Shown here piece by piece: positions 3,433 to 46,400 of a stretch of 64,000 nt of DNA. The notes under the pieces are model-generated. The model did no database searches, had not been told where the DNA came from, and saw nothing but the letters and a program-made list of their open reading frames with translations. This DNA comes from Polychytrium aggregatum (lineage: Eukaryota > Chytridiomycota > Chytridiomycetes > Polychytriales): positions 65,001 to 129,000 of the forward strand of contig NW_026516239.1 in the NCBI RefSeq assembly GCF_025602895.1, written 5' to 3'. The position numbers and the translations under genes were made by a program. Each line of letters starts with the position of its first letter. The first letter of the stretch is position 1.

Positions 3433-6053
3433 CTACTTGCTTCCGGAGATGGCTCGTTTCTGCGCCGCCTTGCGCTCGTTTTGAGACTTTTGAGCCAGAC
3501 GATCGTCCCTGGCACGACCAGAGCGGTCGCCGAACTTGGAGCCATCGTTTTCCTCAAGCAAATGAGCCTCTTGCAGCATATGGCGAGTATTCTCCGCAGC
3601 CAGCTCCTTCTCGGCTCGTCTCTGGGCGCGAGCCAGCTGCTTCTCTGCCTCCATCTTGGCCGCAACGGCAGCCATTTGCTTGGGGTCGATGCGCTCAACC
3701 AGGCCACTGGGCTTGGTGCTGGGCTTGGGCGACTTGGCAGCGCTGTCGTTGGCCTGTGAGGGGCGGGAGCATAAGTGATCGGCATTGTACAAAGCATCAA
3801 GTCTAGTCCCCACGAGGGATTACAAGGGCACCTACCTTGGCGGGAAGGCTTGGGGTTTGAGCTCGCGAATGGGTAGCCGAGGATGCATTGGAAGTGGCCT
3901 TGCTAGCCTTGGGCTGGGGAGTTTGCGCCCGAGAATGGGTGGCGGAAGAACTAGCCGAGGCAGGCTTGCTGGTCTGCTGCTTGGGGGCCAAGGATTGTGC
4001 TGAAGGTGCAGCCTTGCTGGTGGGAGCAGCAGCCTTGTTGGTGGGAGAAGCCGGACGCTGGACGGGGGCAGCCTTGGCGGGAGAAGCAGCCTTGGCAGGG
4101 GTGGTTGCCTTCACTGGAGCAGCAGCCTTCACCGGAGCAGCAGCCTTCGCAGGGGCCTGGGCAGCCTTGTTAGTGGGCGAAACAGGACGCTGGGCGGGAG
4201 TCGCCTTCGACGGGGACGACGGCGTCTGCGAGCGAGAGTGGGGAGCCGAGCTCGAAGGGGACGAGGCCTTCGAAGCCTGCTTGGGAGCAGCAAGCTTGTT
4301 GGATGCCTGGGAAGGAGAAGCTTGTTGGGTCTTGGAAGCCTGTTGGACCTTGGCGGCGGCAATCATCGCAGGCGTGGCAGCCTTCGGAACATTCAAGGAA
4401 GTGGCCGGAGCAGGCGCCTTGGTCACAGACTTGGTGGGAGAGGAAGGAGTCTGGGAACGCGAGTGGTTGGCCGACGACGAGGCAGATGCTCTGGCGGAAG
4501 AGGCATTTGAGGCGGGCTTGACGGCGAGTTGCTGCTGAGGCTTTGCTGAAGCAGACGACGGGCGTGCAGAGTGGACCTTGGACGGGCGACAGGCAGCAAG
4601 GAAGGAAGCGGGTTCATTAAACAGCTCGGCAACAAAGTAGGTCTCGTTCACAGCAGGCCAGGTGTGAGTGGATCCAGCTGGCGTTGCCCCGGTCTTGGCA
4701 GACTTGATCAAGCCGCCACGGGAAGAGGAGCCTACCGCTTTCTGAGCAGCCGGCTTGACATCAGTCTTGGCAACAGCCGGCTTTGGAGTCACAGAGGCCT
4801 TTTGAGCAGCAGCTTGTTGAGCCTTAGCAGCTGCGATCATGATCGGGGTAGCCGCTTTGGGCGAGGTGGTCGAAGGAGCAGCCTTGTTGGTGGGAGAAGC
4901 CGGACGCTGGACGGGGGCAGCCTTGGCGGGAGAAGCAGCCTTGGCAGGGGTGGTTGCCTTCACTGGAGCAGCAGCCTTCACCGGAGCAGCAGCCTTCGCA
5001 GGGGTCTGGGCAGCCTTGTTAGTGGGCGAAGCAGGACGCTGGGCGGGAGTCGCCTTCGACGGGGACGACGGCGTCTGCGAGCGAGAGTGGGGAGCCGAGC
5101 TCGAAGGGGACGAGGCCTTCGAAGCCTGCTTGGGAGCGGTAAGCTTGGTAGCGGCATTTTGAGCCTGGCTGTGATTTACCAGCGAAGTCAGCAGAGAGGT
5201 GCCCTGTGCCGATGACTTGAATTCCGGAGCAGTGGCTCGGAGAGTAGGGGACTTTGCCGAAGGGGAAGAAGCCCTCTGTGCCGGACTGGCACTCTTTTGA
5301 GCAGGAGCCGCAGCCCTGGGGGCCGGGGAAGCAGCCTTGGCGGGAGCGGCAGCCTTGTTGGTAGGAGTAGCAGCCTTGTTGGTGGGAGAAGCCGGACGCT
5401 GGACGGGGGCAGCCTTGGCGGGAGAAGCAGCCTTGGCAGGGGTGGTTGCCTTCACTGGAGCAGCAGCCTTCACCGGAGCAGCAGCCTTCGCAGGGGCCTG
5501 GGCAGCCTTGTTAGTGGGCGAAACAGGACGCTGGGCGGGAGTCGCCTTCGACGGGGACGACGGCGTCTGCGAGCGAGAGTGGGGAGCCGAGCTCCCGGGA
5601 GACGAGGCCTTCGAAGCCTGGGACGGGGCACTCAGCTGCTTCTGCTAAGACGACCAGGAAAGGCGGATCAGCAACACGGATGGATCAGTACCACGGATGG
5701 AATCAGTACCTCGGATGGAATCAGCATGCGGAGAGGAAATTTATCAGGTCATCGCAGACACTCTTACGTTTTGATTTTGGGCTGTCTTGGCAGGGGCAGC
5801 CTGTGCATTCGTTCCGCCGCGGTCACAAAGACAATACAGCAGTGTCATGAGGGATCTTATCGGTGCGGCAACTGTGCCATGTTGTACAATGGCGTGTCCC
5901 TGAGCACATCTACCTTTCATCTACATTGATGGCGGCCTGTCTTACCTGGGCCTTCTTGTTGTTCAGGGGCGCCTTGTTGGCGCCGGCCTGGGCCTGGGCA
6001 GCGTTGGCAGGGCTGACGACGGCAGCAGCAGCTTTGGAAGGACCGCGAACCAT
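3433..6053 (-). CDS. Ala/Lys/Pro/Ser-rich repeat protein with charged coiled-coil-like C-terminus
   Basis: Four minus-strand exons, 5946-6053, 5768-5800, 3836-5641 and 3433-3753, all phase 0, encode 755 aa. Donors are GTAAGA, GTAAGA and GTAGGT; acceptors are CAG. The protein begins MVRGPSKAAAAVV. Most of exon 3 is low-complexity sequence built from motifs such as PTNKAA, SPAKAAP and SQTPSSPSKATPAQR. A module of about 80 residues is present three times and is nearly identical at DNA level (about 5372-5619, 4879-5142 and 4031-4295). One ordered-looking island, ETYFVAELFNEPASF, lies between repeats. The last about 70 residues are highly charged and helical (KQLARAQRRAEKELAAEN). Composition recalls linker-histone tails or Pro/Ala-rich cytoskeletal proteins, but no family can be assigned. 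It is transcribed divergently from the Cys-rich gene at 6729. Confidence 0.7.
4031..5619 (-). repeat. three near-identical about 250-bp coding repeats
   Basis: Copies lie at about 5372-5619, 4879-5142 and 4031-4295 inside exon 3 of the Ala/Lys/Pro-rich gene, in the same orientation and frame. Differences are single bases, which suggests recent duplication or ongoing homogenisation. Confidence 0.8.
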
Positions 6054-19801: not shown

Positions 19802-20037
19802 GACGAGCCCTGCTTGGCTGTATGTCTCGAAGGGCTGTTGTTGCTATCATCATTGTTGTTGCCGTTGCCCTTGCTGTTTCTGTTTCTGTTGCGATTGCCA
19901 TTTCATTTGGAGGTATCAACCTTGGAATGCTTTTGATTTTGTATCACTATCGTCTGTTTGAATTGTCGCTGCTTGTTTGATTCGCTATGGCGTCGATCAC
20001 TCCGCGTGAGTCGCCTCGAGTTTTCCTTTTTACAGTC

Positions 20038-20039
20038 TA
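20038..20039. repeat. left TA target-site duplication
   Basis: TA immediately outside the left inverted repeat, matching the TA at 23658-23659. Confidence 0.75.
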
Positions 20040-20058
20040 TCCAATAAAAAACGGGACA
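20040..20058 (+). repeat. left terminal inverted repeat (19 bp)
   Basis: TCCAATAAAAAACGGGACA; pairs with 23639-23657 in inverted orientation with three mismatches. Confidence 0.85.
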
Positions 20059-20116
20059 CCCGGGCTTTTGACCATTCATCGAATATTTTGTTACCCAATG
20101 TTATCGCGCGCTGGCC

Positions 20117-20923
20117 ATGACCATTCGCCACACATCCGACTTTCGCACCGCCGCATTGCGATGCTACGCCCTCATCCATAGCCTGCGTAAGGTCGCCTCC
20201 ATATTCAGTGTATCCAAGAGCACCATCCATCGATGGCACCGAGGATGCAAGCTGGATGACCCATCCCGAGTCACAGCTCGCAGATCCACTTTCTTCGAGC
20301 AGGCATGTCCAGTCATTCGCACCCTGATTGAACAGGACCCGTTCCAGACTGGTCCTGTGTTGCGATGCAAGCTCGAGTCCATCCTCCAGAGGAAAGTATC
20401 ACTCTCACTCTGCCACACTGCCATCCACCGAGCAGGTCTCTCACACAAGAGGGCAACACACCTCTACAAGTCCAAGCGACTGGATGAGCGAGTGGCACAG
20501 TTCAGGGACCAGGTCCGCTCCATCGACCCGCGGCGATTCGTTTTTGTCGACGAGACAGGGATCAGGAGATCCATTTTCCCTCTCTACGGATACTCACCGA
20601 AGGGTGCTCCGCTTCGCCAGCGCAATCACATGAAACACAAGTCTGTCTCGGCTGCATTTGCCATCAACCACTCTGGTGTGCTGCATCGTATGTACATCCC
20701 CACATCATTCAAGACACACTCGATGGTCGAGTTCTTTGAGCGAGCGGCCTTCCCAGACGACTCTGTGATTGTGATGGACAATGTCAGCATGCACAAGACA
20801 AGGGCTGTCCTGGACTGCATCGAGCGCCGAGGATGGTCAGTGATCTTCACCCCACCTGCTTCACCCGACTTCAATCCCATCGAGAACTTCTTTGGGGTTG
20901 AGTCCCCACCGATTTGGGGTTGA
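20117..20923 (+). CDS. IS630/Tc1-mariner DD34E transposase, C-terminally truncated
   Basis: A single exon of 268 codons starts at ATG 20117, 58 bp inside the left inverted repeat. An N-terminal helix-turn-helix (SLRKVASIFSVSKSTIHRWH) would bind the ends. The RNase H-like core shows FVDETGIRRS (first Asp), VIVMDNVSMHK (second Asp) and SPDFNPIEN (Glu); 34 residues separate the second Asp from the Glu, the DD34E spacing of the IS630/Tc1 group. Complete members of the family carry some tens of residues after the Glu. Here the frame runs from ENFFG into a TTTGGGG repeat and stops, so the C-terminus has been lost. All three catalytic residues remain, but activity is doubtful. Confidence 0.85.
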   Translation: MTIRHTSDFRTAALRCYALIHSLRKVASIFSVSKSTIHRWHRGCKLDDPSRVTARRSTFFEQACPVIRTLIEQDPFQTGPVLRCKLESILQRKVSLSLCHTAIHRAGLSHKRATHLYKSKRLDERVAQFRDQVRSIDPRRFVFVDETGIRRSIFPLYGYSPKGAPLRQRNHMKHKSVSAAFAINHSGVLHRMYIPTSFKTHSMVEFFERAAFPDDSVIVMDNVSMHKTRAVLDCIERRGWSVIFTPPASPDFNPIENFFGVESPPIWG

Positions 20924-20953
20924 GTTCCTCCAATTTGGGGTTTAGTCCCCCAA
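20891..20953. repeat. three short hairpin-like repeats at the transposase/Fanzor junction
   Basis: Units starting TTTGGGGTTGAGTCCCC (20891), TTTGGGGTTGAGTTCC (20913) and TTTGGGGTTTAGTCCCCC (20934) follow each other every 20-22 bp. Units one and three have GGGG and CCCC arms around a six-base loop. They mark the exact point where the transposase frame breaks off. Confidence 0.8.
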
Positions 20954-21059
20954 TCACGCCGCCATTTTCACGCTCAAATCCCTGGCTTGAACCTCTCGGC
21001 GATTTTTGAACAGGGTCACTTCCCCAACCAGCCCGCAAAGACGGGTTCCTGCTCTCGGG

Positions 21060-21066
21060 TATAAAT
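21060..21066 (+). promoter_or_regulatory. TATA box of the Fanzor gene
   Basis: TATAAAT in the context CTCGGGTATAAATGCC, 129 bp before the Fanzor ATG at 21195, inside the transposon. This suggests the gene carries its own promoter. Confidence 0.55.
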
Positions 21067-21194
21067 GCCACACCTTCGTCCTGCTGCTTTCTTCCCTCAT
21101 CTCGCCTTGATCTGATCATCGCGCTATTGTACGATAAAAAAAAGTCTCTCCTCTGACCAGTACCACTGGCAGGCATCCAGCATCCTCTGTCCCC

Positions 21195-23566
21195 ATGCCT
21201 CCGAAGCGCAAGGGTACCGGTGATGGCCAGCCTCGGCCACCCAGGCCCAAGAAAGCCAAGTCACAGTCGGAGCCTGTCTCTGGTTCGTATTCTGATCCCA
21301 CGCATGCTTGTTCGTCTGTTGCTCCGTTGCTCACCACCACTGCTTCTGCAGATCCAATGGATGTCGATCCCACCGAGCCTGGTCCATCTACTTCCTCGAG
21401 TACCGGCAAGCGATGTCCCAAGTGCGACGGCACCGATCACGAACGTTGCAACACCAGCAAATGTCCCAAATACCGGCCCCTCAAGAGTTCTGTCGTCCCT
21501 CTCGTGGATGGAAGGTCATCCGCCCCTCAGTTCAGCTGCTTCAAGCAGACGATGGATGGCTGTTGTCTCAATCCCGCTCTCCGCGACAAGATCCAGGCCA
21601 CCGTCGAGGCCATGACCCAGATCCAGTTCGAGGTATCCAGGCCGCTCAACCTACATATCCTCCGGTGCATCGAGCAGGATCTTCCCGTCCCCGTCATCTC
21701 CAAGTCCACCCCTGCTTTCATCCGCCAATGCTTCACGATTGTCGAGGCCGGTGCCCTCTCGCCGACCGGGGACAATGAGAAATACAACGAGCATCTGGTC
21801 GCTTCCTTTCGCGACTACCAGACCACTCGGCACGCAGACCTGCCTCCGGCCCTCGTCTGCCTGATGGTGCTCACAGTCAGCTTCTCACCCTGGCTGTCAA
21901 TGCCTATGCTACCAACTGCACCACCCACCTCGACCTGGCCTACTGGCGACTCCTTCGCCGCTTCTGCGCTGCCGTCTTCCCAGCCAACAAGCGTAAGCAC
22001 GAAGCCATCGAGGCCTGTCTCGAGCTCTTCGAGAAACCAGGGCAGACTCCACCCAAGGCCGATCTCGAGTTCCTCTATCCAGACTTTGGCCACGTCCTGG
22101 ACGAGTTTCGGTACAGCAACGACCAGGACCGCTTCCGGGCCCTCCATCGCCTCTCACACCATGTGAGAATCCTCGCCCGGGACAAGATGGTCGACGATGT
22201 CCACAAGTGGATCGACTGTGACATGCCCGCCCTCCGAGTCACCGAGCTGCAGCGCCAGGCCAAGCTGGACGAGCTCACTGCCCGAGGCATTCCCTCCGAC
22301 GACAAGAGGTTCACCACGGCCAAGTCTGAGCTCGGCACCACCAAGTCCAAGATCAACAAGCTGGCCGCCAGGATCAACTGGGCGCTCAAGCAGCTCGCTC
22401 TCGACACTCCTCCGGCCGTGTGCACGATGGTTCCTCTATGCACTGCCACGGCCAAGTATGTCAAGATTGACACGGTCACTCTCTGGCAACTCCTTGACAC
22501 CGAACATCGTCTTAGACTCACCAGGGACAAGCTCAAGGATGAAGGCAAGGACGGTGTCAACAACCAGGATCGTCTCTGGCGCAGTTGCTTCAAGCTGCGT
22601 AGTTCCCTCTTCCAAGAGCGAGACGTGAACAAGAAGCTGTTCAACTACGAGATCAGCACCGATGGCATTGGATGCACCATCGGCCTCGTCAAGTTTCTGC
22701 CTCGAACCGATCACACCGAGACCATCGAGCCTCCTCCGACTGCCGAGCAGCGCATCCAGGCCCACATCGGCGACCCAGACCCCGACAAGACCACTTGGAT
22801 TGGCATCGATCCTGGAGTCGGCTCCATCTTCACGGCGGTCATCCAAGCACCGGGCCACCGAGACGAGGTGGTCTCGTTCTCCAATGGCCACTACCAGCAC
22901 ATGTGTGGCCATACGTCCAACACCAAGTGGCACAATATCATGAAGTATCGACTCAGCATCGAGACCTGGATGTCGACCACTCCCTCGCCCAAGGTGTCGT
23001 CCTCGGAGGCTTTCAAGGTCCATCTCACCCATGTCCTGCGACCGGAGCTGCGAGTGCAGCTCGACTTCCACCTTGGCAAGAAGGCCCGTCACCATCGATT
23101 CACAGGCCACAAGAGGCGCCAAGTGGCCGTCGACAGGATGTGCAAGGCCGTCCTGAAGCACGCCCCGATACGGACCGATGTGGTGATCGCCTTTGGCAAT
23201 GCGTCATGGCGACAGGGCAAGGGCTATGCATCCAGCCCTCGGAGGCAGCGGTTTGCTCGGTACTTTGAGCAATTCGAGCACCACCGACGCCGTCCCAATC
23301 ACCATCATGGAAGCGTCAAGGTGGCCTCGACGAACGAGTTCAACACCTCACAGGTGTGCTCCAAGTGCCTGGAGCCAGTTCGGTTGGAAGGACTCGATGC
23401 GCCCAGTGTTGCGAATTCCCACTTTGTCAGGAGCTGCAAGAATCCCAGCTGCCGGACAGTGTGGAATCGCGACGTCAATGCGGCGCGCAACATGATCGCA
23501 GTCTGCAAGTCGATTGTGGAGATTGGAGAGCGACCGGCGGTCTTCACTCGGAGGCTGCCAAAGTGA
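21195..23566 (+). CDS. Fanzor (eukaryotic TnpB-like) RNA-guided nuclease, with one apparent frameshift
   Basis: The span is about 790 codons. The N-terminus is basic and NLS-like (PPKRKG, RPKKAK), followed by a Cys/His cluster (CPKCDGTDHERC...CPKY). The reading frame from 21195 remains family-like to about 21865; from about 21878 the family-like sequence (LLTLAVNAYATN) continues in another frame, so a one-base indel or a very short unrecognised intron lies between. The C-terminal half carries the split RuvC nuclease: WIGIDPGVGS (Asp, RuvC-I), VVIAFGNASW at the RuvC-II strand where TnpB has Glu but this protein has Gly, an alternative Glu 47 residues further on (STNEFNTS), a zinc finger CSKC...CKNPSC and NRDVNAARNM (Asp, RuvC-III). 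The displaced Glu is a hallmark of Fanzors. Catalytic parts look intact; full-length expression is uncertain because of the frame break. Confidence 0.88.
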
Positions 23567-23657
23567 TCTGTTTTATTTCTTGTGGCTTTGCTTGACGCAA
23601 GCACAGCACATACTACATGTTCATGGAAACGGCTATATTGTCCCGTTTTTTTCTGAA
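23450..23657 (+). ncRNA. predicted Fanzor guide-RNA (omega-RNA) scaffold region
   Basis: In TnpB and Fanzor elements the guide RNA scaffold overlaps the 3' end of the nuclease gene and runs to the right transposon end, with the guide read from flanking DNA. Only 91 bp separate the Fanzor stop from the right end here, so the scaffold should lie about here. The position is inferred from family knowledge, not seen as a defined structure. Confidence 0.3.
23639..23657 (-). repeat. right terminal inverted repeat (19 bp)
   Basis: TGTCCCGTTTTTTTCTGAA on the plus strand; inverted partner of 20040-20058. It is followed by the TA duplication at 23658-23659. Confidence 0.85.
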
Positions 23658-23661
23658 TAAA
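23656..23661 (+). terminator. AATAAA po­ly(A) signal spanning the transposon right junction
   Basis: The last two bases of the right inverted repeat, the TA duplication and two host bases together read AATAAA, 90 nt after the Fanzor stop. Confidence 0.4.
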
Positions 23662-25321
23662 GTGTACTTCCAGTCCGCTCCCCTCGCCTCTCACGCTCCG
23701 CGGCGATTCGGCTCAGGGTCGAATCCACGACTTGGAGGCAGCCCGGCTCAGCTTGCCACCCATGACAGTCTTTCGCTTTCCTGCTCCCCCCCCCCGCCAC
23801 AGCGATCGAATCGCAAAATTGCGCATTGGAAGCAAACATGGGCCGAGAGCCACCACCCACACACTAGACCACCCTGTTTTGACTGGGCGATGGAGCAACG
23901 GCCCCACAGCACACGCGGCCGGTTCATGTGGGCGGCTGGTCTGTCGACGGACGCGAAGAGAGATGGCGCCTCGACTGAGGCGGGAGCCCAAGGCCGATCA
24001 AGAGTGAGTCAGGGTCGTGACGGTGAGTCAAGCAGGGACAGCCAAGGGGGGGGGGGCAGCCACAAATGACCCAACCCGTCACTCGAAGGAAGGTACATGG
24101 AGACGATGTCGCTCCGGCAAGACTTGCTTGGGCTGGCGGCGGTGCCGAAGCATCATTCCGTTCGTTGGACATGGAGAGACCTTGTGCTTTTTTTTTCCTC
24201 GCAAACCCAATCCGATGCTTTGGATGTGGCGTCCGCACTCTGAGCCGGCTGGTTGCCCGCACCAAGCGGACGCAGCAGGGATACGGGTTGGCAGCATGGA
24301 CTTGGTGGACCGGTGGAGACTGGCGAAGCGTACGAATCAATGGGTGGCTCAGGGACGGAGGCAACGATGGCAGCACCAGCAGTACCAGCAGCAGCATGGG
24401 CAGCAGCAACGGCAGCAGCAGCTTGCATCCCAGGGCAGCCAGAGTCGTCCCAGGCCCAGTTGGAAGGCGTCAGCAGGGAACGCTGGGAAAGACCCGTCCC
24501 CAGGAGACGCGGGTTGATGGACGGGCGCGTGCGGGTGGTGGCGCTGTGCAACCGCCGCGGAGGGCGGCGTGGGGTGCTCCAGAATTGCGATTGGCGCAGG
24601 GCCGGCCGCCGCAAGTTTGCGAGGCGGCAGAGGCTCGGCTTGTGGCCCGGCGTGTGGCCCGCGAAGGACAAGGACGCTGCTGGCAAGAGGGACAGGCCGG
24701 GACGGCGGTGCGACGCAAAGAGGCAAGGGCCTCGCCACTGGGACTGTGCCGGACCCGCGACGCGCGTACGCGGCTGTGGCGCTCAGCAACTGTACGGCTG
24801 TGTGCGAGCCGAGCGCGCTGTATGACAACAAGGACCCACCGCATGTGCCTCGGGTGCGGCTTGACGCGCGGCGTCGGCCTTATTCTGCCGCGGTGGCCGC
24901 GCTTGTGCAACCGATGCTCGCGCCGCATACTCTTGCTGTGCCAGCACAGGTAGCCCACAGCACAACAACGCAACGGACCCAGTCGTTACTCGTAACCGCA
25001 ACGCAGCAGCACCGACTATCTGCGATGTGCCTGCGATGCGTCTGCCAGAGAGCAATCTCGGGCACTAGCGTATCCACCGGCCTTGGTTGGGCGGCGATGA
25101 GTGCCGTCCTCCTGCATCCACCCAACAGCCACCCATCCATCCAGCCATCCACTCACGCGTACAGTCAGCGACACTGGGCTCCGCAGCCGCCCTCACAGGA
25201 AAAACGATGGCATCCTTGTGGCCCCCCACTCCTTTCTCATTTGGGAGGCGGTTCCGCGGCCAGCCGTTCATGCAGGCGCCTCGCTTTCACCCTTCCCCCC
25301 GTGCGGTTTCCGAGCGCTGGC
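23660..25321. other. GC-rich intergenic region upstream of oxidase gene A
   Basis: Contains homopolymer runs (C near 23790, G near 24050, T near 24190) and a CAG-rich stretch at about 24370-24425. Several long overlapping frames exist on both strands but none shows a protein family, so none is called. Confidence 0.45.
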
Positions 25322-25411: not shown

Positions 25412-28400
25412 ATGAAGTCAAGCACTCTTCTCGGGGCCATTGCCCTCGTCCCTGCCGTCTGGGCCCAGTGTGCCATCGGTAAGTGCCCCATCCGTCCCAT
25501 AGGACCCCCAGCGGGTCCAGCCGGAAGCTGTGCCCTGGGGCATGAGCGGCATTGCTAGTCAATAGGAACGGACAATATCTCGCCATGGTCTAACGAATCC
25601 ATGCACATTTTCTCCCTCCCCGACCGCATGAATCGCTCTCCCAGACGCCGCAACCCGTATCGACTGTGGAAGTAAGTCAATGATCGATATTCTTCATGGA
25701 AATGCCTGCCATGGTGCCATCCATGTGCTTCCACCACAGCTGTCTGACTGCTGCTCCTCTGCTCTAGATGCCACCACCACCCAGGCCTCCTGCACGGCTA
25801 CCGGCTGCTGCTGGAACCCGCTTCCAGCTGGCCAGGCGGGCCCGGCGTAAGTCTCGATCGTCGCATGCGAGCCCCTGCCGCTATAAGGCTGGCTGATCAA
25901 CGATTCGCCCTATAACGCGACTGCATCTCGACATCCAGGTGCTTCTACTCCACCACCCAGCTCACCAACCCTGCCGGATGCCCCGCCGGCGGACAGGCCG
26001 CTGCCAACCGCATCGATTGCGGTGCCCCAGGTCAGTGTCGTGAGCAAATGAGGCTGCGACGTTGCTGAAGTTGCAACGAGCAATGGCGTGGGATTGAATG
26101 CTCGCTGTTGCCGGACCTGCAAAGAAAGGCCATGTGCCGCTGCTAACCCTTCGGTCCGTCGATTTCCATTGTTTCAGGCATGAACCAGGGCCAGTGCATC
26201 CAAAAGGGATGCTGCTGGAACCCTCTCGCCACTGGTGTCGCCGGCCCCTGGTGAGTGAGCGCCTATCTCGTAGCGATTGCCATCTGGATGCAGTGATGCA
26301 ATGATGCAAATCAAGTCGTGCGGAACACGCTTGATTTTGAGACCCGACATCCAAGGGCATTTGATGAACGGCAGTCCTTACATGTCCTCCTTGCGTATAC
26401 GCTCCCCCACACCAGGTGCTACACCGTCCCCTCCCCGGTTGTCAACCGACCAGCTGCTTGCCCCGCCACCCCTATGAGTAAGTGACTGCAGCCAACCCAG
26501 GCTTGTGTATCATCAGCTCAACCGAGCTTCATTCCGCCATTCAAACGAATGGAATGCACTATTTTTTTTGACAATCCCCTCACCATCTCGTTCTGTAGCC
26601 GGAACCCTCCGCGTGGACTGTGGCAATGCTAGTAAGTAGCAGGACCATTGGCTTTCATACCGTCACCAGAGGACAGAGGATGCTTCGATATATGAGGTGA
26701 CTTACGACATTGTTGCCGGCTTTGCCATCTACAGACAGCACTCAGAACAGCTGCTACGCCTCCGGCTGCTGCTGGGACACTCTTCCTGCTGGACAGACCG
26801 GCCCCAAGTAAGAATCGAGAGTGACTATTCCCGCCCCACCGATCGCTTCTGTTCATCGCTTGTCATCAGTTATTCACCCTCATGCCTTTGCTCTCACCCC
26901 TTTCGCCATCAGCTGCTACCAGGCCAACACTGTCCAACGCCCCGCTGCCTGCCCTGCCACTCCTCGCGATCCCACCCTTCGCACCAACTGCGGAAATGCT
27001 ACCACCACCCCTGCTTCGTGCGCTGCCCTTGGCTGCTGCTGGGATACAATCCCCGCTGGCACCGCCGGCCCGAACTGCTATACCGCCACGGCGCCTCGCC
27101 CGGCTGCATGCCCCGCCACCCCTCGCCCGGCTACCCTCCGTGTGGACTGCGGCAACGCCAACACCACTCCGGACTCTTGCGCTGCCCTTGGCTGCTGCTG
27201 GGATCCCCTCCCTGCTGGCACTGCCGGCCCCTATTGCTACAGTGCAGCCACTCCTCGCCCTCCCACCTGCCCCTTGACTCCCCTTGCCCCGGCCTATCGA
27301 TTCGACTGTGGTAATGCTACTTCCACCCCCGACTCCTGTGCTGCCTCCGGCTGCTGCTGGGACACTCTCCCCGCTGGACAAGTTGGCCCCAAGTAAGTGT
27401 CGATTCCGAAACGACGAAGTGCAAATGCATGGCAGGGCCGACCAGAATTGGCATAGGCAATCACGGAAACTAACACGACTCTATCCACAGCTGCTACAAC
27501 GCTCCCAACTACTGCCCCGTCAAGCCTACCCCCGGCAACCAGCGCATCGACTGTGGCAACGCTACCACTACCCAAGCCCAGTGCGTCACCAGCGGATGCT
27601 GCTGGAGCCCTCTTGGTCCCACCGACATTCCCGGCCCGACATGCTACAAGTTCCTGTCGCCCGTTGACACCGGTTGCCCTGTCACCCCTGTTCCCAAGTG
27701 GTACCGCATCGACTGTGGTGATGCCTCGACCACTGCGCTTGGATGTGTTCAAACTAACTGCTGCTGGGATATCACCGCCCTTGGCACTGGACCCAACTGC
27801 TACACCAAGCAATCCGGTCTCCCGGCCTCTCCTCCTCCTCCGATCCCGACTCCTCCTCCTCAAGACCCCAACACCGGCAACTACTCGGTTCTGTACATTG
27901 GCGCCACCGTCCCGATCCATCTGTACGTTGCCCCCGTCAGCAACAAGGTCATCCTCCTTGAGCGTATCTTTGGTGGCGTGTTGAATACCACTCACTCCTG
28001 TAAGTAACTTGTTACACCAAGCACCTCCGGAATTGTTACGATGATCACTGTATCTTCCCAACACAATACTGATTCCCCATCTTTCACAGATGAGCTCGAT
28101 GTCACCACCGCGACCGAGCGCCCGCTCCACGTCATCACCGACATTTTCTGCTCCGCCGGTGTCATTCTCCCTGTTCCGGCCGCAACCCTGATCAATACCG
28201 GTGGCTGGTCCGATGTTGCCCTCTACGGTGTCCGTGCCTTCAACCCCTGTGGCTCCAACGGTGTCTCGGGCACTTGCGACTGGGTCGAGAACAACCAAAT
28301 CTCCAAGCTCCAGGTTCCTCGCTGGTACCCTACTTCGATCACTCTGTCGAACGGACAGCTTGTTGTGATGGGAGGTTTGACGGCCCAGAACGTTGCCGGC

Positions 28401-31681: not shown

Positions 31682-34600
31682 ATGGTCAACAGTCTCATCG
31701 GCATCAAGCCGCTCCTGCTCGGAGCGCTGTGCGTTGCTCCGCTCGCCCTCGCCAGCCCTTACAAGTGTGTGGCCTCCCCCAACGCCTGCCAGGCTGCCGG
31801 TAATGATGTCGCTGGGCTGTCAAAGCTGTCGCTGCTTCATGCGAGCCCACAAACCTAACAGTCGTTTCCCCGCCTGCTTGTCACCCAGATGCTGCTCCCC
31901 GTGTTGATTGTGGAAGTAAGTGCAAGTCGATTCGATTGCAAGTCTCATTTGACGACTGTGTTTGGCCCTGAAGTCCGCGCGCCTGCCACCCATCCTGCAC
32001 CAAACGACTCTCTCTCAGCTGCCACGAGCACTCACCCTGTGGTATCGAATGCCGTTCCCTCGTTTTGGCAGATGTCACCACCACCGTCGACGAGTGTGTC
32101 GCTTCTGGCTGCTGCTGGGGCACCCCTCCTGCCAATCAGCCCAACGGCCCCTAGTAAGTCTGCCACGATCCTGGTCCAAGCGTTTCCGTCAGCCGTGGGA
32201 TCATGGTTCCTCCCTTACTGACACACGCTTTATTCCCCAGCTGCTTCTTCTCCTCGGTCCAGCTCCTGAACCCTGCCGCCTGTCCGGCCACTCCAATCGA
32301 CGCTTCCGACCGAACCGACTGCGGGTACTTTGGTAAGCGGCGACCTTTGCTAAAGAGGAATCTCAAACACCAGTCGCTCCAAGTCCGTGGTCGACTTGAC
32401 GCACACCGAGCTCCAGCCGACATAATCGTGCGTCACCGTGACTAACGAGGATCATCAACTGTCACAGGTATCAACCAAGGCCAGTGTGTTCAAAAGGGCT
32501 GCTGCTGGGCTCCCCTGAGCAACAACGCTACCGGACCCTGGTGAGTTACTGTGGCAGCCCTGTCATTTGACGTCATGTCCTGACCGCGGAATGAGGGTGC
32601 ACAAACAACGATCCAACGAGAACCACGAAAAATGTGCGCATTATACCACATACAATCCTTGGACGATGAAGCTGGAAATTGACGCAACGTATTCGATCCA
32701 TTGCCATCAACAGGTGCTACGCTCCCTCTGCATCCTCCTCGACGGTTGTCTCCAGCGTCGTTGCCTCGGCGACCTCTGGTTCCGTTGCTGCCTCGGCTAC
32801 CAGTGCCAGTGCCAGTGCCAGTGCTAGTGCTAGTGCTAGTGCTAGTGCTAGTGCCAGTGCCAGTGCCAGTGCCAGTGCCAGTGCCAGTGCCAGTGCTAGT
32901 GCTAGTGCTAGTGCCAGTGCCAGTGCTAGTGCTAGTGCCTCAGCTTCCGACTCGGCCTCTGCATCGGCTTCGGCATCGGCTTCCGATTCAGCCTCCGTAT
33001 CTGCATCTGCATCGGCCTCTGCATCGGCTTCCGCCTCGGTCACTCCCTCCAACACCCAGTCGTCCGCCTCCAGTCCCAGCTCCAGCAGCCTTCCTGATCT
33101 CGGTGCCGCTGTTGCTTGCCCTACCACTCCCCTTGCCGGTGGTCTTCGTGTCGACTGTGGCAACACCACCACCACCCCGGCTTCGTGTACCGCTTCCGGA
33201 TGTTGCTGGAGCCCCCTGCCCGCCGGCACGGCTGGCCCCAACTGCTACTTCCCTGCGGCCATCCAACGTCCTGCTGCTTGCCCTGCCACTCCTCGTGTTG
33301 CCAACCTTCGTGTCGACTGTGGAAACACCAACACCACTTCCACCTCCTGTGCTGCCTCGGGCTGCTGCTGGGACCCGCTTCCCGCTGGCACTGCTGGCCC
33401 GAACTGCTATACCACTGCCCCTGCGCGACCTGCCGCTTGCCCGGCCACTCCTCTCACGGCTACTGGTCGAACAGACTGCGGCAATGTTAACACTACTCCG
33501 GACTCTTGCGCTGCCTCGGGCTGCTGTTGGGATCCCCTCCCTGCCGGCACTGCTGGCCCGAACTGTTACTATGCTCCCAACACACCCATTCGCCCAGCTG
33601 CATGCCCTGCCACCCCTCGCCCTGCTGCCCTTCGCATTGATTGCGGCAACGCCAACACCACTTCCACTTCCTGTGCTGCCTCGGGCTGCTGCTGGGATTC
33701 CCTCCCTGCTGGCACTGCTGGCCCCTATTGTTACACCACAGCCACCCCTCGCCCTCCCACCTGCCCCTTGACCCCGCTCACTCCGGCCTATCGATTCGAC
33801 TGTGGTAATGCCACTACTACTCCCGATTCATGCGCTGCCTCTGGCTGCTGCTGGGACCCACTCCCAGCTGGACAGGCTGGACCTTATTGTTACAACGCTC
33901 CCAACTACTGCCCCGTCAAGCCTACCCCCGGCAACCAGCGCATCGACTGTGGCAACGCTACCACTACCCAAGCCCAGTGCGTCACCAGCGGATGCTGCTG
34001 GAGCCCTCTTGGTCCCACCGACATTCCCGGCCCGACATGCTACAAGTTCCTGTCGCCCGTTGACACCGGTTGCCCCGCCACCCCTGTTGCCAAGTGGTAC
34101 CGCATCGACTGTGGTGATGCCTCGACCACCCCTCTTGGATGTATCGACAGCGGCTGCTGCTGGGATACCACCGCCCTTGGTACTGGACCCAACTGCTACA
34201 CCAAGCAATCCGGTCTCCCGGCCTCTCCTCCTCCTCCGATCCCGACTCCTCCTCCTCAAGACCCCAACACCGGCAACTACTCGGTTCTGTACATTGGCGC
34301 CACCGTCCCGATCCATCTGTACGTTGCCCCCGTCAGCAACAAGGTCATCCTCCTTGAGCGTATCTTTGGTGGCGTGTTGAATACCACTCACTCCTGTAAG
34401 TAACTTGTTACACCAAGCACCTCCGGAATTGTTACGATGATCACTGTATCTTCCCAACACAATACTGATTCCCCATCTTTCACAGATGAGCTCGATGTCA
34501 CCACCGCGACCGAGCGCCCGCTCCACGTCATCACCGACATTTTCTGCTCCGCCGGTGTCATTCTCCCTGTTCCGGCCGCAACCCTGATCAATACCGGTGG

Positions 34601-43438: not shown

Positions 43439-46400
43439 ATGAAGACCGCTGTCCTCCTTGGAGCCCTGGGCCTGCTTTCGCTGGCCTCGGCACAAACAGC
43501 CCAGTGCCCGACCAGTAACCGTCGTATCCAGTTGATGCACTCTGCCGTTGGCCACTGCCCGCCCTTGCCACTGATTCGTACTGGTCCGTACTGATCTTCG
43601 CGCCGGTCCCCGTTTGCCCTTTCCCCACACCGTCTTCGTCAACCCGATCAAACGTCGATCCTATGACCCACATGTCAACTCCTGTCTCGGTCGATTCTTC
43701 CCGGGTTGCTGGGCGCTCCTCCACCAGGCGGAAACCGCATCGACTGTGGCAGTAAGTGTTCGCACCGCATGAACACCGCGCAATCCCAAACCATACCTCT
43801 CTAACCCAATCAAACTGCTGTCTCAGACGCCAATACCACCCAGACCTCGTGCACTGCCTCGGGCTGCTGCTGGTCTCCCCTCCCTGCTGGCCAAAATGGA
43901 CCTTTGTAAGTATCCTGCTGATGCTGATGCTGATGCTGATGCTGATGCTGATGCTGATGCTGATGCTGATGCTGATGCTGATGCTGATGCTGATGCTGAT
44001 GCTGATGCTGATTGGATATGGCGCTGGATCCCACCTGTCTTGTGTCGCTTGCTCGCTCCTCTCATCTTGTTCTAACTGGCACCCTCCACCTTGCCTTCCC
44101 AACCGCCATTCCACAGCTGCTTCTACTCCACGACCCAGTTGACCAATCCTGCTGCCTGCCCTGCCGGTGGTCTTGATCCCTCCCTTCGCGTGGACTGCGG
44201 TGTCTCTGGTGCGTATTGTCCCCTGTGCTGCTTCCATTGGTGTGCATCTGTCACAACACCCCTCCCTCCTGTTCTCATCATACTCCCTTGTCTTCTGTTT
44301 GATCGCTTGTCTCACTAGGTACCAACCAGGGACAGTGCATCAGCAAGGGCTGCTGCTGGAACCCCCTGGCTTCTGGTGTGGCCGGTCCTTGGTACGTGTA
44401 CCAAACGCCCTCGCTTAGCGGCAGATTGAACTGGGCAACTCGACACTCGTTACTGCATCAGGCTTCTGTGGCATGGGCAAAGGCATCGATGCTATCGCTT
44501 GATCTCTGCACGAGGGCGCATGGCATTGATCGCTCCGTCTCTTTCGTCCATCAGGTGCTACAACACTCCCAAGCTCACCATCCCCAGACCCGCCACCTGC
44601 CCCGCCACCCCAGCCCGTATGTATCGATCACGACCGCTGCACTGTGTCGCAAACTACATCAAGTGCACTCCTCTCGCTCCTGTAGTTCATCCGGGGACAA
44701 TGTTGTTTCTACCTGACCAACTCACCGCTGTTTCTGACCCTTTCTTTCGTCTCCTCGATCAGCCGCCACCTCCCGTGTTGATTGTGGAAATGCCAGTGAG
44801 TAGCAACTCGGCGCCATCCTCCTTCTACATCGCCATTCTGTGCCATCATTTTACATCATGCCCAGCCTGTTGCTCACGACAATCCTCCACTGCATCTAGC
44901 CACCACCCAGGACAGCTGCTACAGCAGCGGATGCTGTTGGGACCCTCTCCCTGCCGGCACCACTGGCCCATAGTACGTATCGGTACCAGCGAGATCGGTC
45001 GCAATGATGCCGACGACGAGTGCCAAATGTCGACTCACGCCTAACCCCCTCAATCCCTTCACACACGCAGCTGCTACAACTCGAACATCGTCCCGCGCCC
45101 GCCTTCGTGCCCTACGAGTCCCCGTCGTAAGCCTCGATCTCCCTTCTCCTTTCGCATTAGAATCGCAGGGCTGATCGCACAGCCCGAGTTCTATGCACTG
45201 TCTTGATTCAGTCTCGTGCAATTACTAAATGCATTCAACATGTTTGCCTCGTTCCAGCTGCCAGTCTTCGCCAGGACTGTGGTAATGCGTGTAAGTAGCT
45301 CAACCATTGGCCTCACGTTTTGGATACATCCAGATGCCGCATCTGATCAGAGTCTTACGTCTCCCATCGCACATCTCATATCTCACATCTCCCGTTTTGA
45401 CTCTTCGACTTTGGTTTCTAGCCACGACTGCCACTTCGTGCGCTGCCGCTGGCTGCTGCTGGGATCCTCTCCCTTCCGGCACCCCCGGTCCCTAGTAAGC
45501 CAGTCCATTCGCTTTCGATCATGGCTTGAGTTGGGTAACGTTCTCTCGTGAGATGAGGGCTATGTCTGGTTCTGACCCATAACCTTGCTTTCGTTTCCAG
45601 CTGTTATACTTCAGCTGTCCCTCGCCCTGCCACTTGCCCCAGCACTCCCCTGAGTATGTTGTTGGATCAGTGTCCATGCTACTTTGCACATGCCTGATCG
45701 GCTGCCAGCTAATGCGGTTGCTACTTTCCTCAGACACGACCCTCAGAGTCACCTGTGGAGAGGCCAGTAAGTACCACCCCTCGGCAGCCTTTGTAGTGGT
45801 CATCTGTCATCGATATCCTGACCCGCCCTGGCTTGTTCTGATTCCTCTGGCTCACTGTTTTTATCCGAATTTAGTCTCCGATGCCGACACTTGCGCCTCC
45901 AACGGATGCTGCTGGGACCTTGTGCCTACCGGAAGCACCGCCCCCAGGCATGTAATCACGGACGTCATTTCGATCGCTCCCACGGATGGTGGCTTTGTCA
46001 TCCGCAATCGGTCCTAACTGAGGCACTGTCTCGATTGCATTTCCAGCTGCTACACCGCTCCGAACTACTGTCCCGCTGTGCCTGTGGCTTCGAACCTGAG
46101 AATCGACTGTGGCACCTCCAGTGAGTATCCTGCGACCGTCCAGTTAGCCCACAAGGGTTACTACATTTCCAGATGCTTGACGCTGCATGGTTTTGGGACC
46201 TGGGCCTCGATCTAACGCCGCGGCCATGACAGACACCACTCAGGCAAGCTGCGGCAACAGCGGCTGCTGCTGGAGCCCTCCTGCTCCCACCGATCCTCCT
46301 GGACCCTCGTGCTACCTGAACCTCAACTCCACCAGCATTGGCTGTCCGGCCGGTGAGTTTACCGATGTGCATTCCGCAGCTGCGAGGACCTCTCGGCCCA

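What the first reader, a model, noticed from the sequence alone, without database searches (positions are those of the whole stretch)
20040..23657. Complete Fanzor-bearing Tc1/IS630 transposon with both ends and TA duplication
Seen directly: 19-bp inverted repeats (16/19 identical, 13-bp perfect core) flanked by TA on each side enclose a DD34E transposase and a Fanzor gene. Fanzors are programmable eukaryotic nucleases, and few are described with defined ends together with their partner transposase. The boundaries give an immediate empty-site prediction (ACAGTC-TA-AAGTGT) and a family signature for finding relatives.
Basis: partly seen in the sequence, partly recalled or inferred. Interest (0 to 1): 0.9.

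Follow-up and report, generated by a model that had tools for sequence, protein, structure and literature searches.

The report
Fanzor-carrying Tc1 transposon family, shuffled inside
The window holds a damaged copy of a large family of cut-and-paste DNA transposons that carry an RNA-guided nuclease (Fanzor); the copies studied sit beside a fixed short sequence tag on one side, more often keep the nuclease than the transposase, and often differ inside between the two haplotypes of the same site, which makes the unknown job of Fanzor testable.

Summary
In 40 of 40 copies compared, similarity runs 7-8 bp past both reported ends. The element is 20033-23664 (3,632 bp), with TA at 20031-20032 and 23665-23666, so the proposed empty site is wrong. 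It holds an IS630/Tc1 DD34E transposase (C-terminus lost here) and a Fanzor gene (frameshifted here).
The family is large: 150 of 150 scored Fanzor C-terminal matches are complete; of 149 rows transcribed, 97 have a full open frame. Of 40 copies, 29 keep the Fanzor ORF and 10 the transposase. The Fanzor-less derivatives read keep at least 159 bp of the right end, where a guide RNA would be encoded.
All 34 unique loci have TTA on the left only, 27 with A/T before it. In Spizellomyces Fanzor elements a conserved CA plus TA equals the measured CATA motif.
Of 40 sites tested, 23 have a second haplotype: none empty, 12 with element versions differing by more than 100 bp.
Best reading: a known kind of element in which Fanzor helps keep sites occupied while interiors are rewritten by ectopic repair. 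RNA, cleavage, excision and host identity are untested.

The parts
20030..20032 (+). left target tag TTA; TA at 20031-20032 is the left half of the presumed target-site duplication
   Evidence: TTA in 40 of 40 copies; letters checked
   Evidence: conservation across 40 copies
20033..20058 (+). left terminal inverted repeat, 26 bp
20117..20923 (+). IS630/Tc1 DD34E transposase ORF, 268 aa; sequence after the catalytic E deleted or replaced (intact form 310 aa)
21195..22166 (+). first open piece of the Fanzor gene; leaves the family frame near 21850
22163..23566 (+). second open piece of the Fanzor gene (open in this frame from 21779), with RuvC and zinc-finger motifs
23499..23666 (+). right-end stretch kept by the shortened derivatives that were read; presumed guide-RNA scaffold (inferred)
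   Evidence: fold not exceptional, z -1.49
23639..23664 (+). right terminal inverted repeat, 26 bp
23665..23666 (+). right TA
   Evidence: TA in 39 of 40 copies, TG in one
23667..23686 (+). right flank, the presumed guide sequence of this copy (inferred by analogy)
   Evidence: no sequence preference on the right of 34 loci; analogy to Saito 2023

Best explanation
A high-copy Fanzor-bearing Tc1/IS630 DNA transposon family. Shown here by sequence: the anatomy; the left-only TTA tag; retention of the right end by the shortened derivatives that were read; a Fanzor ORF intact more often than the transposase in the same copies; no empty haplotype at the sites tested; and different element versions at the same site on two haplotypes that share end variants. 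Inferred: the transposase cuts the element out; the right end and adjoining flank are transcribed into a guide RNA; Fanzor with that guide cuts the rejoined empty site next to (A/T)TTA but not the right junction, which reads GTA; the break is repaired from an element-bearing template. Repair that switches to other copies restores the insertion but replaces or deletes its interior, giving transposase-less, Fanzor-less and miniature forms that keep both ends.
For: Tag: TTA in 40 of 40 copies; 172 exact consensus left ends follow T and 6 follow another base; A/T at -4 in 27 of 34 loci, right flank flat (p 3e-5). Fanzor fingerprint DPG and ExxxxxxCxxC. Of 40 copies 29 keep the Fanzor ORF, 10 the transposase, 8 both; Fanzor only 21, transposase only 2. 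Fanzor four-fold-site diversity 0.0764 against 0.025 at second positions; 0.0244 at 37 sites from 3420 on against 0.0815 at 372 earlier sites, p 0.011. Six derivatives keep left 90-656 and right 159-440 bp. 40 sites searched: 23 with a second haplotype, 0 empty, 12 differing by more than 100 bp (with 28). End variants shared by both haplotypes while interiors differ. Three large transposase deletions occur in all four combinations for all three pairs among 34 loci.
Against: No RNA, cleavage or excision data. Insertions may be older than the haplotype split (flanks 0-2 mismatches per 600 bp in six pairs; random copies differ by 4.0%), so a lack of empty sites does not require Fanzor. Conversion in a high-copy family can occur without Fanzor. 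The left T could be a transposase preference: Fanzor-less derivatives show it too. The transposase also shows constraint. 11 of the 23 double sites differ by less than 100 bp, and one pair is identical but for one base. Loss of linkage within 50 bp may partly be an assembly effect. The right-end fold is not exceptional (z -1.49), and the drop in four-fold diversity fades with later cut points (p 0.06 and 0.36).
Confidence: 0.58

Rival explanations
1. An old Tc1/Fanzor family, with ordinary ectopic gene conversion. The insertions predate the two haplotypes, so both carry them. High copy number and near identity let interiors convert; Fanzor is a passenger or serves something else.
For: Flanks of shared sites are nearly identical (0-2 mismatches per 600 bp in six pairs) while random copies differ by 4.0%. 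Clustered differences and loss of linkage fit conversion.
Against: Does not explain the one-sided TTA tag, the kept right end, or the better preservation of Fanzor than transposase in the same copies.
Confidence: 0.3
2. The tag is the transposase's own asymmetric target preference: the two ends differ in sequence, and the left end is joined only on the T side of TA. Fanzor does not select sites.
For: TTA also precedes the Fanzor-less derivatives read. Left and right arms differ (21/26 identical).
Against: In Spizellomyces the conserved CA before the left repeat, in full and ghost elements, plus TA equals the Fanzor motif measured in vitro. The derivatives keep the presumed guide-RNA end, so they do not separate the two ideas.
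Confidence: 0.35
3. The differing interiors of haplotypes are largely assembly errors in a repeat family.
For: SNP linkage is at background within 25-50 bp, shorter than usual conversion tracts; raw reads were not available.
Against: Differences are of 100 bp to 3.3 kb at 12 of 23 sites, with end variants shared; the L053/L069 difference lies inside an element of about 280-310 bp; differences are clustered in 5 of 6 pairs; one pair is identical but for one base; 0 N in 287,830 bases of loci.
Confidence: 0.12

Closest known systems
SPu-1 / SpuFz1 of Spizellomyces punctatus (Bao and Jurka 2013; Saito 2023)
   Same: Fanzor1 between inverted repeats with TA; a conserved tag just left of the left end in full and ghost copies; right-end RNA region similar in ghost copies (section 7). 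C-terminal tail alike; SpuFz1 is the only PDB profile hit, E 0.13, not significant.
   Different: Left tag (A/T)TTA here, CATA there; a transposase lies within the same ends here, none was found there; 790 aa against 633; more copies here (19 full-length loci reported there; 150 scored places here).
Mariner-type Fanzor1 elements PUl-1 and PGv-1 (Bao and Jurka 2013)
   Same: Mariner/Tc1 transposase plus Fanzor1; TA duplications (section 7).
   Different: PGv-1 is single-copy and has a further nuclease gene. Their sequences were not compared with this family.
IS200/IS605 elements with TnpB
   Same: Target motif shared by transposase and nuclease; flank-encoded guide; proposed retention and drive role (PMC11870625, passages read).
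   Different: TnpA with single-strand transposition there (recalled); DD34E cut-and-paste type transposase here. No drive is shown here.

Membership tests
Tc1/mariner-IS630 superfamily | IS630-type DDE transposase, DD34E-type spacing | tested here: met
   IS630 model 111.3 bits over cut-off 100 for L034; spacing 34 in 10 of 10 intact ORFs
Tc1/mariner-IS630 superfamily | terminal inverted repeats flanked by a TA duplication | tested here: inconclusive
   Arms 21/26 identical; TA on both sides in 39 of 40 copies. No empty site found at 40 sites. In L026, L042 and L044 a 7-8 bp direct repeat beginning with TA flanks the element, so TA is duplicated target there
Fanzor (any) | DPG at RuvC-I and E six residues upstream of the zinc finger (definition from PMC10711439 passages) | tested here: met
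   D539-P-G and E715 followed by six residues and CxxC. 22 of 29 intact ORFs pass all three strict motif checks. Of the other 7: L032 has K for E; L038/L039 lose a zinc-finger cysteine; L029 and L036 change only next to the kept RD; L018/L019 differ within the FNTS stretch, not examined further
Fanzor1 | carried by a eukaryotic non-IS607 transposon; larger protein | tested here: met
   790 aa within Tc1/IS630 ends; the genome is given by the tool as not prokaryotic only in that it has no relatives held and 64.7 Mb, so 'eukaryotic' is inferred
Fanzor1 | place in the Fanzor1 clade; characteristic REC2 helices | not tested
OMEGA system | guide RNA from the right end reaching into the flank | not testable with these tools
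   No RNA data; indirect signs only
OMEGA system | RNA-guided cleavage beside a TAM | not testable with these tools
   (A/T)TTA is a prediction from flanks

The most novel reading that the evidence does not exclude
A natural eukaryotic case of RNA-guided site retention acting on a cut-and-paste transposon: Fanzor of this family re-cuts any emptied site at (A/T)TTA, including sites held by Fanzor-less derivatives that still encode the guide RNA, so insertions stay on both haplotypes while their contents are rewritten from other copies.
Probability: 0.38. Interest if true: 0.85.

Novelty: new member of a known kind. Interest (0 to 1): 0.62.

Why it matters
Saito 2023 states that the biological role of Fanzor is unknown and found no transposase inside the ends of its best-studied element (section 11). 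This genome offers a Fanzor family with intact transposase copies, on the order of a hundred full Fanzor frames each beside its own potential guide, Fanzor-less derivatives that keep the presumed guide-RNA region, a predicted motif and a self-sparing rule (left TTA, right GTA). That makes 'does Fanzor keep its transposon in place?' directly testable.

Tried and rejected
Empty sites in the same genome: none at 34 plus 6 sites. Viral relatives of the Fanzor: none confirmed (the tool chose two N-terminal patterns, so this is a weak test). Rfam: 0 matches at E 0.1 in 3,801 bases. PDB by sequence: only weak hits. NCBIfam TnpB models: matches below their cut-offs. Retrotransposons as a control for linkage: unsuitable; the six loci fall into different families or are nearly identical, so no control transposon family was obtained. 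Structure: not obtained.

Selection and dropped rows. The 40 copies are the 40 scored of 1,221 candidates, chosen by total match, so copies lacking much of the Fanzor are under-represented in 29 of 40. In one search the first 100 listed left ends were paired with the listed right ends on contigs up to C79; 51 paired, 49 did not (a variant right end or other family is possible). In one search, 149 values of 150 rows were transcribed. L030 was left out of the 23 double sites because only its left half was found on a second contig. For the second allele, 12 of the 23 were read in full, 10 (L015, L021, L022, L027, L034, L035, L036, L040, L046, L054) were judged only by the spacing of half-sites, and for L049 only the two ends were read. 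One search stopped with an error and was repeated.

The frameshift is near 21850, not 21870.
Full report
Observation. The arms, the DDE transposase and the Fanzor-like gene are in the sequence. The host genome (unnamed, 64.7 Mb in 418 contigs) holds many copies; 40 were scored of 1,221 candidates, and these 40 were fetched with 600-bp flanks. The family typically begins TTA|CAGGCAATCCAATAAAAAACGGGACA and ends TGTCCCGTTTTTTTCTGAATAAAGTG|TA. The window element is therefore 20033-23664, 3,632 bp, with 26-bp arms (21/26 identical).

Genes. The intact transposase is 310 aa, IS630 family, DD34E. The window copy is of a class in which about 105 bp after the catalytic E are deleted or replaced. The intact Fanzor is 790 aa; in the window the reading frame is lost near 21850. 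The intact protein has the fingerprint given for Fanzors in PMC10711439 (passages read): DPG, and E six residues before CxxC. Sequence similarity to solved structures is weak; the only profile hit at E up to 10 is SpuFz1 (8gkh), E 0.13, over the C-terminal tail.

Copy number and integrity. A 251-aa C-terminal query gave 150 scored places of 1,283 candidates, each covering the whole query at 94-100% identity. Of 149 transcribed rows, 97 have an open frame of at least 790 codons without a stop; haplotypes are counted apart. Among the 40 copies, 29 keep the Fanzor ORF, 10 the transposase, 8 both; Fanzor only 21, transposase only 2. Counting one per shared site: 24 and 7 of 34. The sample favours copies with a full Fanzor region, so the within-copy comparison is biased in the same direction; large Fanzor deletions, as in the derivatives below, exist outside the sample. 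Third codon positions vary more than first and second in both genes, so both have been under constraint.

Derivatives. Pairing listed exact ends gave 41 elements of 3.4-3.8 kb, 4 of 1.1 kb and 6 of 279-380 bp among 51 paired of 100 left ends. Two more miniatures (L057, L069) were read later. A diverged miniature beside L022 matches the last 168 bp at 83%, and by my reading its 10-bp hairpin over the Fanzor stop codon stays paired despite substitutions. Four-fold-site diversity is 0.0244 at 37 sites from 3420 on against 0.0815 at 372 earlier sites (p 0.011); with cuts at 3520 and 3560 p is 0.06 and 0.36. These are indirect signs of a guide-RNA scaffold; the fold is not exceptional (z -1.49).

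Target tag. With corrected ends, 34 of 34 loci have TTA on the left, 27 of 34 A or T before it, and the 20 bases on the right show no preference. Across the genome 172 exact consensus left ends follow T and 6 another base; one of the six (L060) is the second haplotype of a site whose other haplotype has T. The base before the right TA is G in 34 of 34. In Spizellomyces, full and ghost elements have a conserved CA before the left repeat, and the motif measured in vitro is CATA (sections 7 and 8 read). By analogy the motif here should be (A/T)TTA and the right junction GTA should be spared. This is a prediction; a transposase preference is the rival.

Haplotypes. Many sites occur on two contigs. 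Joined flanks of 34 sites and 6 derivative sites were searched; no empty site was found. 23 of these 40 have a second occupied copy with both halves found, and 12 of the 23 differ by more than 100 bp inside. Examples: L042 (3,587 bp) against L057 (293 bp), both with left end GTGGCAA; a 1.1-kb element (L049) against one of Fanzor-bearing size, both with GAGGTAA; L044 against L070, both with TCCCGCAA; L053 against L069, miniatures with the same bases on both sides of a swapped internal tract. In six pairs with 600-bp flanks, flank mismatches were 0-2 per side (with gaps of 50 and 42 columns in two flanks) while the elements differed by 0.03-3.4%; random copies differ by 4.0% on average. In four pairs with shorter flanks, flank mismatches were 0-4 per side. 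Differences are clustered in 5 of the 6 pairs; the sixth has one difference.

Exchange between copies. Three large deletions in the transposase occur in all four combinations for each of the three pairs among 34 loci. Linkage among 188 common SNPs is near background beyond 25-50 bp. The SNP result could be inflated by assembly; the structural results are harder to explain that way, but raw reads were not available and no control transposon family was obtained.

Reading. The simplest joint account is repair-driven rewriting of element interiors at sites that stay occupied. Whether Fanzor causes the repair is not shown: old insertions plus ordinary gene conversion would also leave no empty sites. 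What speaks for a Fanzor role is the one-sided tag, the kept right end and the better preservation of Fanzor than of transposase.

Literature. Searches: Fanzor+transposon, Fanzor+gene drive (50), TnpB+retention/homing (51), Fanzor+terminal inverted repeat+transposase+fungi, 3 of 4 terms (60), Fanzor+chytrid (82), Fanzor+gene conversion (83). I saw the listings; none showed a report of this family or of differing allele contents in Fanzor elements. The library lacks most subscription papers and the host has no name here, so the family may be described elsewhere. Read: PMC3627910 passages and section 7; PMC10432273 passages and sections 7, 8, 11; PMC10711439 passages and section 27; PMC11870625 and PMC12633428 passages.

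Odds. The check changed two facts (frameshift place, number of E-to-K copies); confidence was lowered slightly, from 0.60 to 0.58 for the best reading and from 0.40 to 0.38 for the novel case, because the derivatives also carry the T, so the tag does not separate the two readings.

Noticed in passing
left ends of L026, L042/L057, L044/L070: The first 5-6 bases of the element equal the first bases of the right flank, giving 7-8 bp direct repeats in place of TA; each ends in GC, shared with the usual CAGGC end. Suggests a left junction made by microhomology repair.
   Followed up: partly
L030 right flank (last 600 bases of the locus): A miniature element of a related family lies directly beside the copy; it is bounded by the same 8-10 bases on both sides.
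   Followed up: no
L035 right flank, L030 right flank, L055: Signs of a second, diverged Fanzor family (69% DNA identity over about 380 bp in L035's flank), with miniatures that seem to keep its own right end.
   Followed up: no
L021, L032, L047 right flanks: Copies that sit at or near ends of other elements with similar repeats; their predicted guides would lie on those ends.
   Followed up: no
Fanzor ORFs of L032, L038/L039: Full-length frames with a changed key residue: K for the likely catalytic E in L032, R for a zinc-finger C in L038/L039.
   Followed up: partly
window 25768-27405, 33109-33901, 43827-45507: Repeated cysteine-rich coding units at about 159-bp spacing, and a gene region repeated three times at about 28-29, 35 and 48 kb.
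   Followed up: no
host genome contigs C11, C115, C201, C366 and others: Clusters of reverse-transcriptase elements with long open frames (150 scored places of 1,671 candidates).
   Followed up: no
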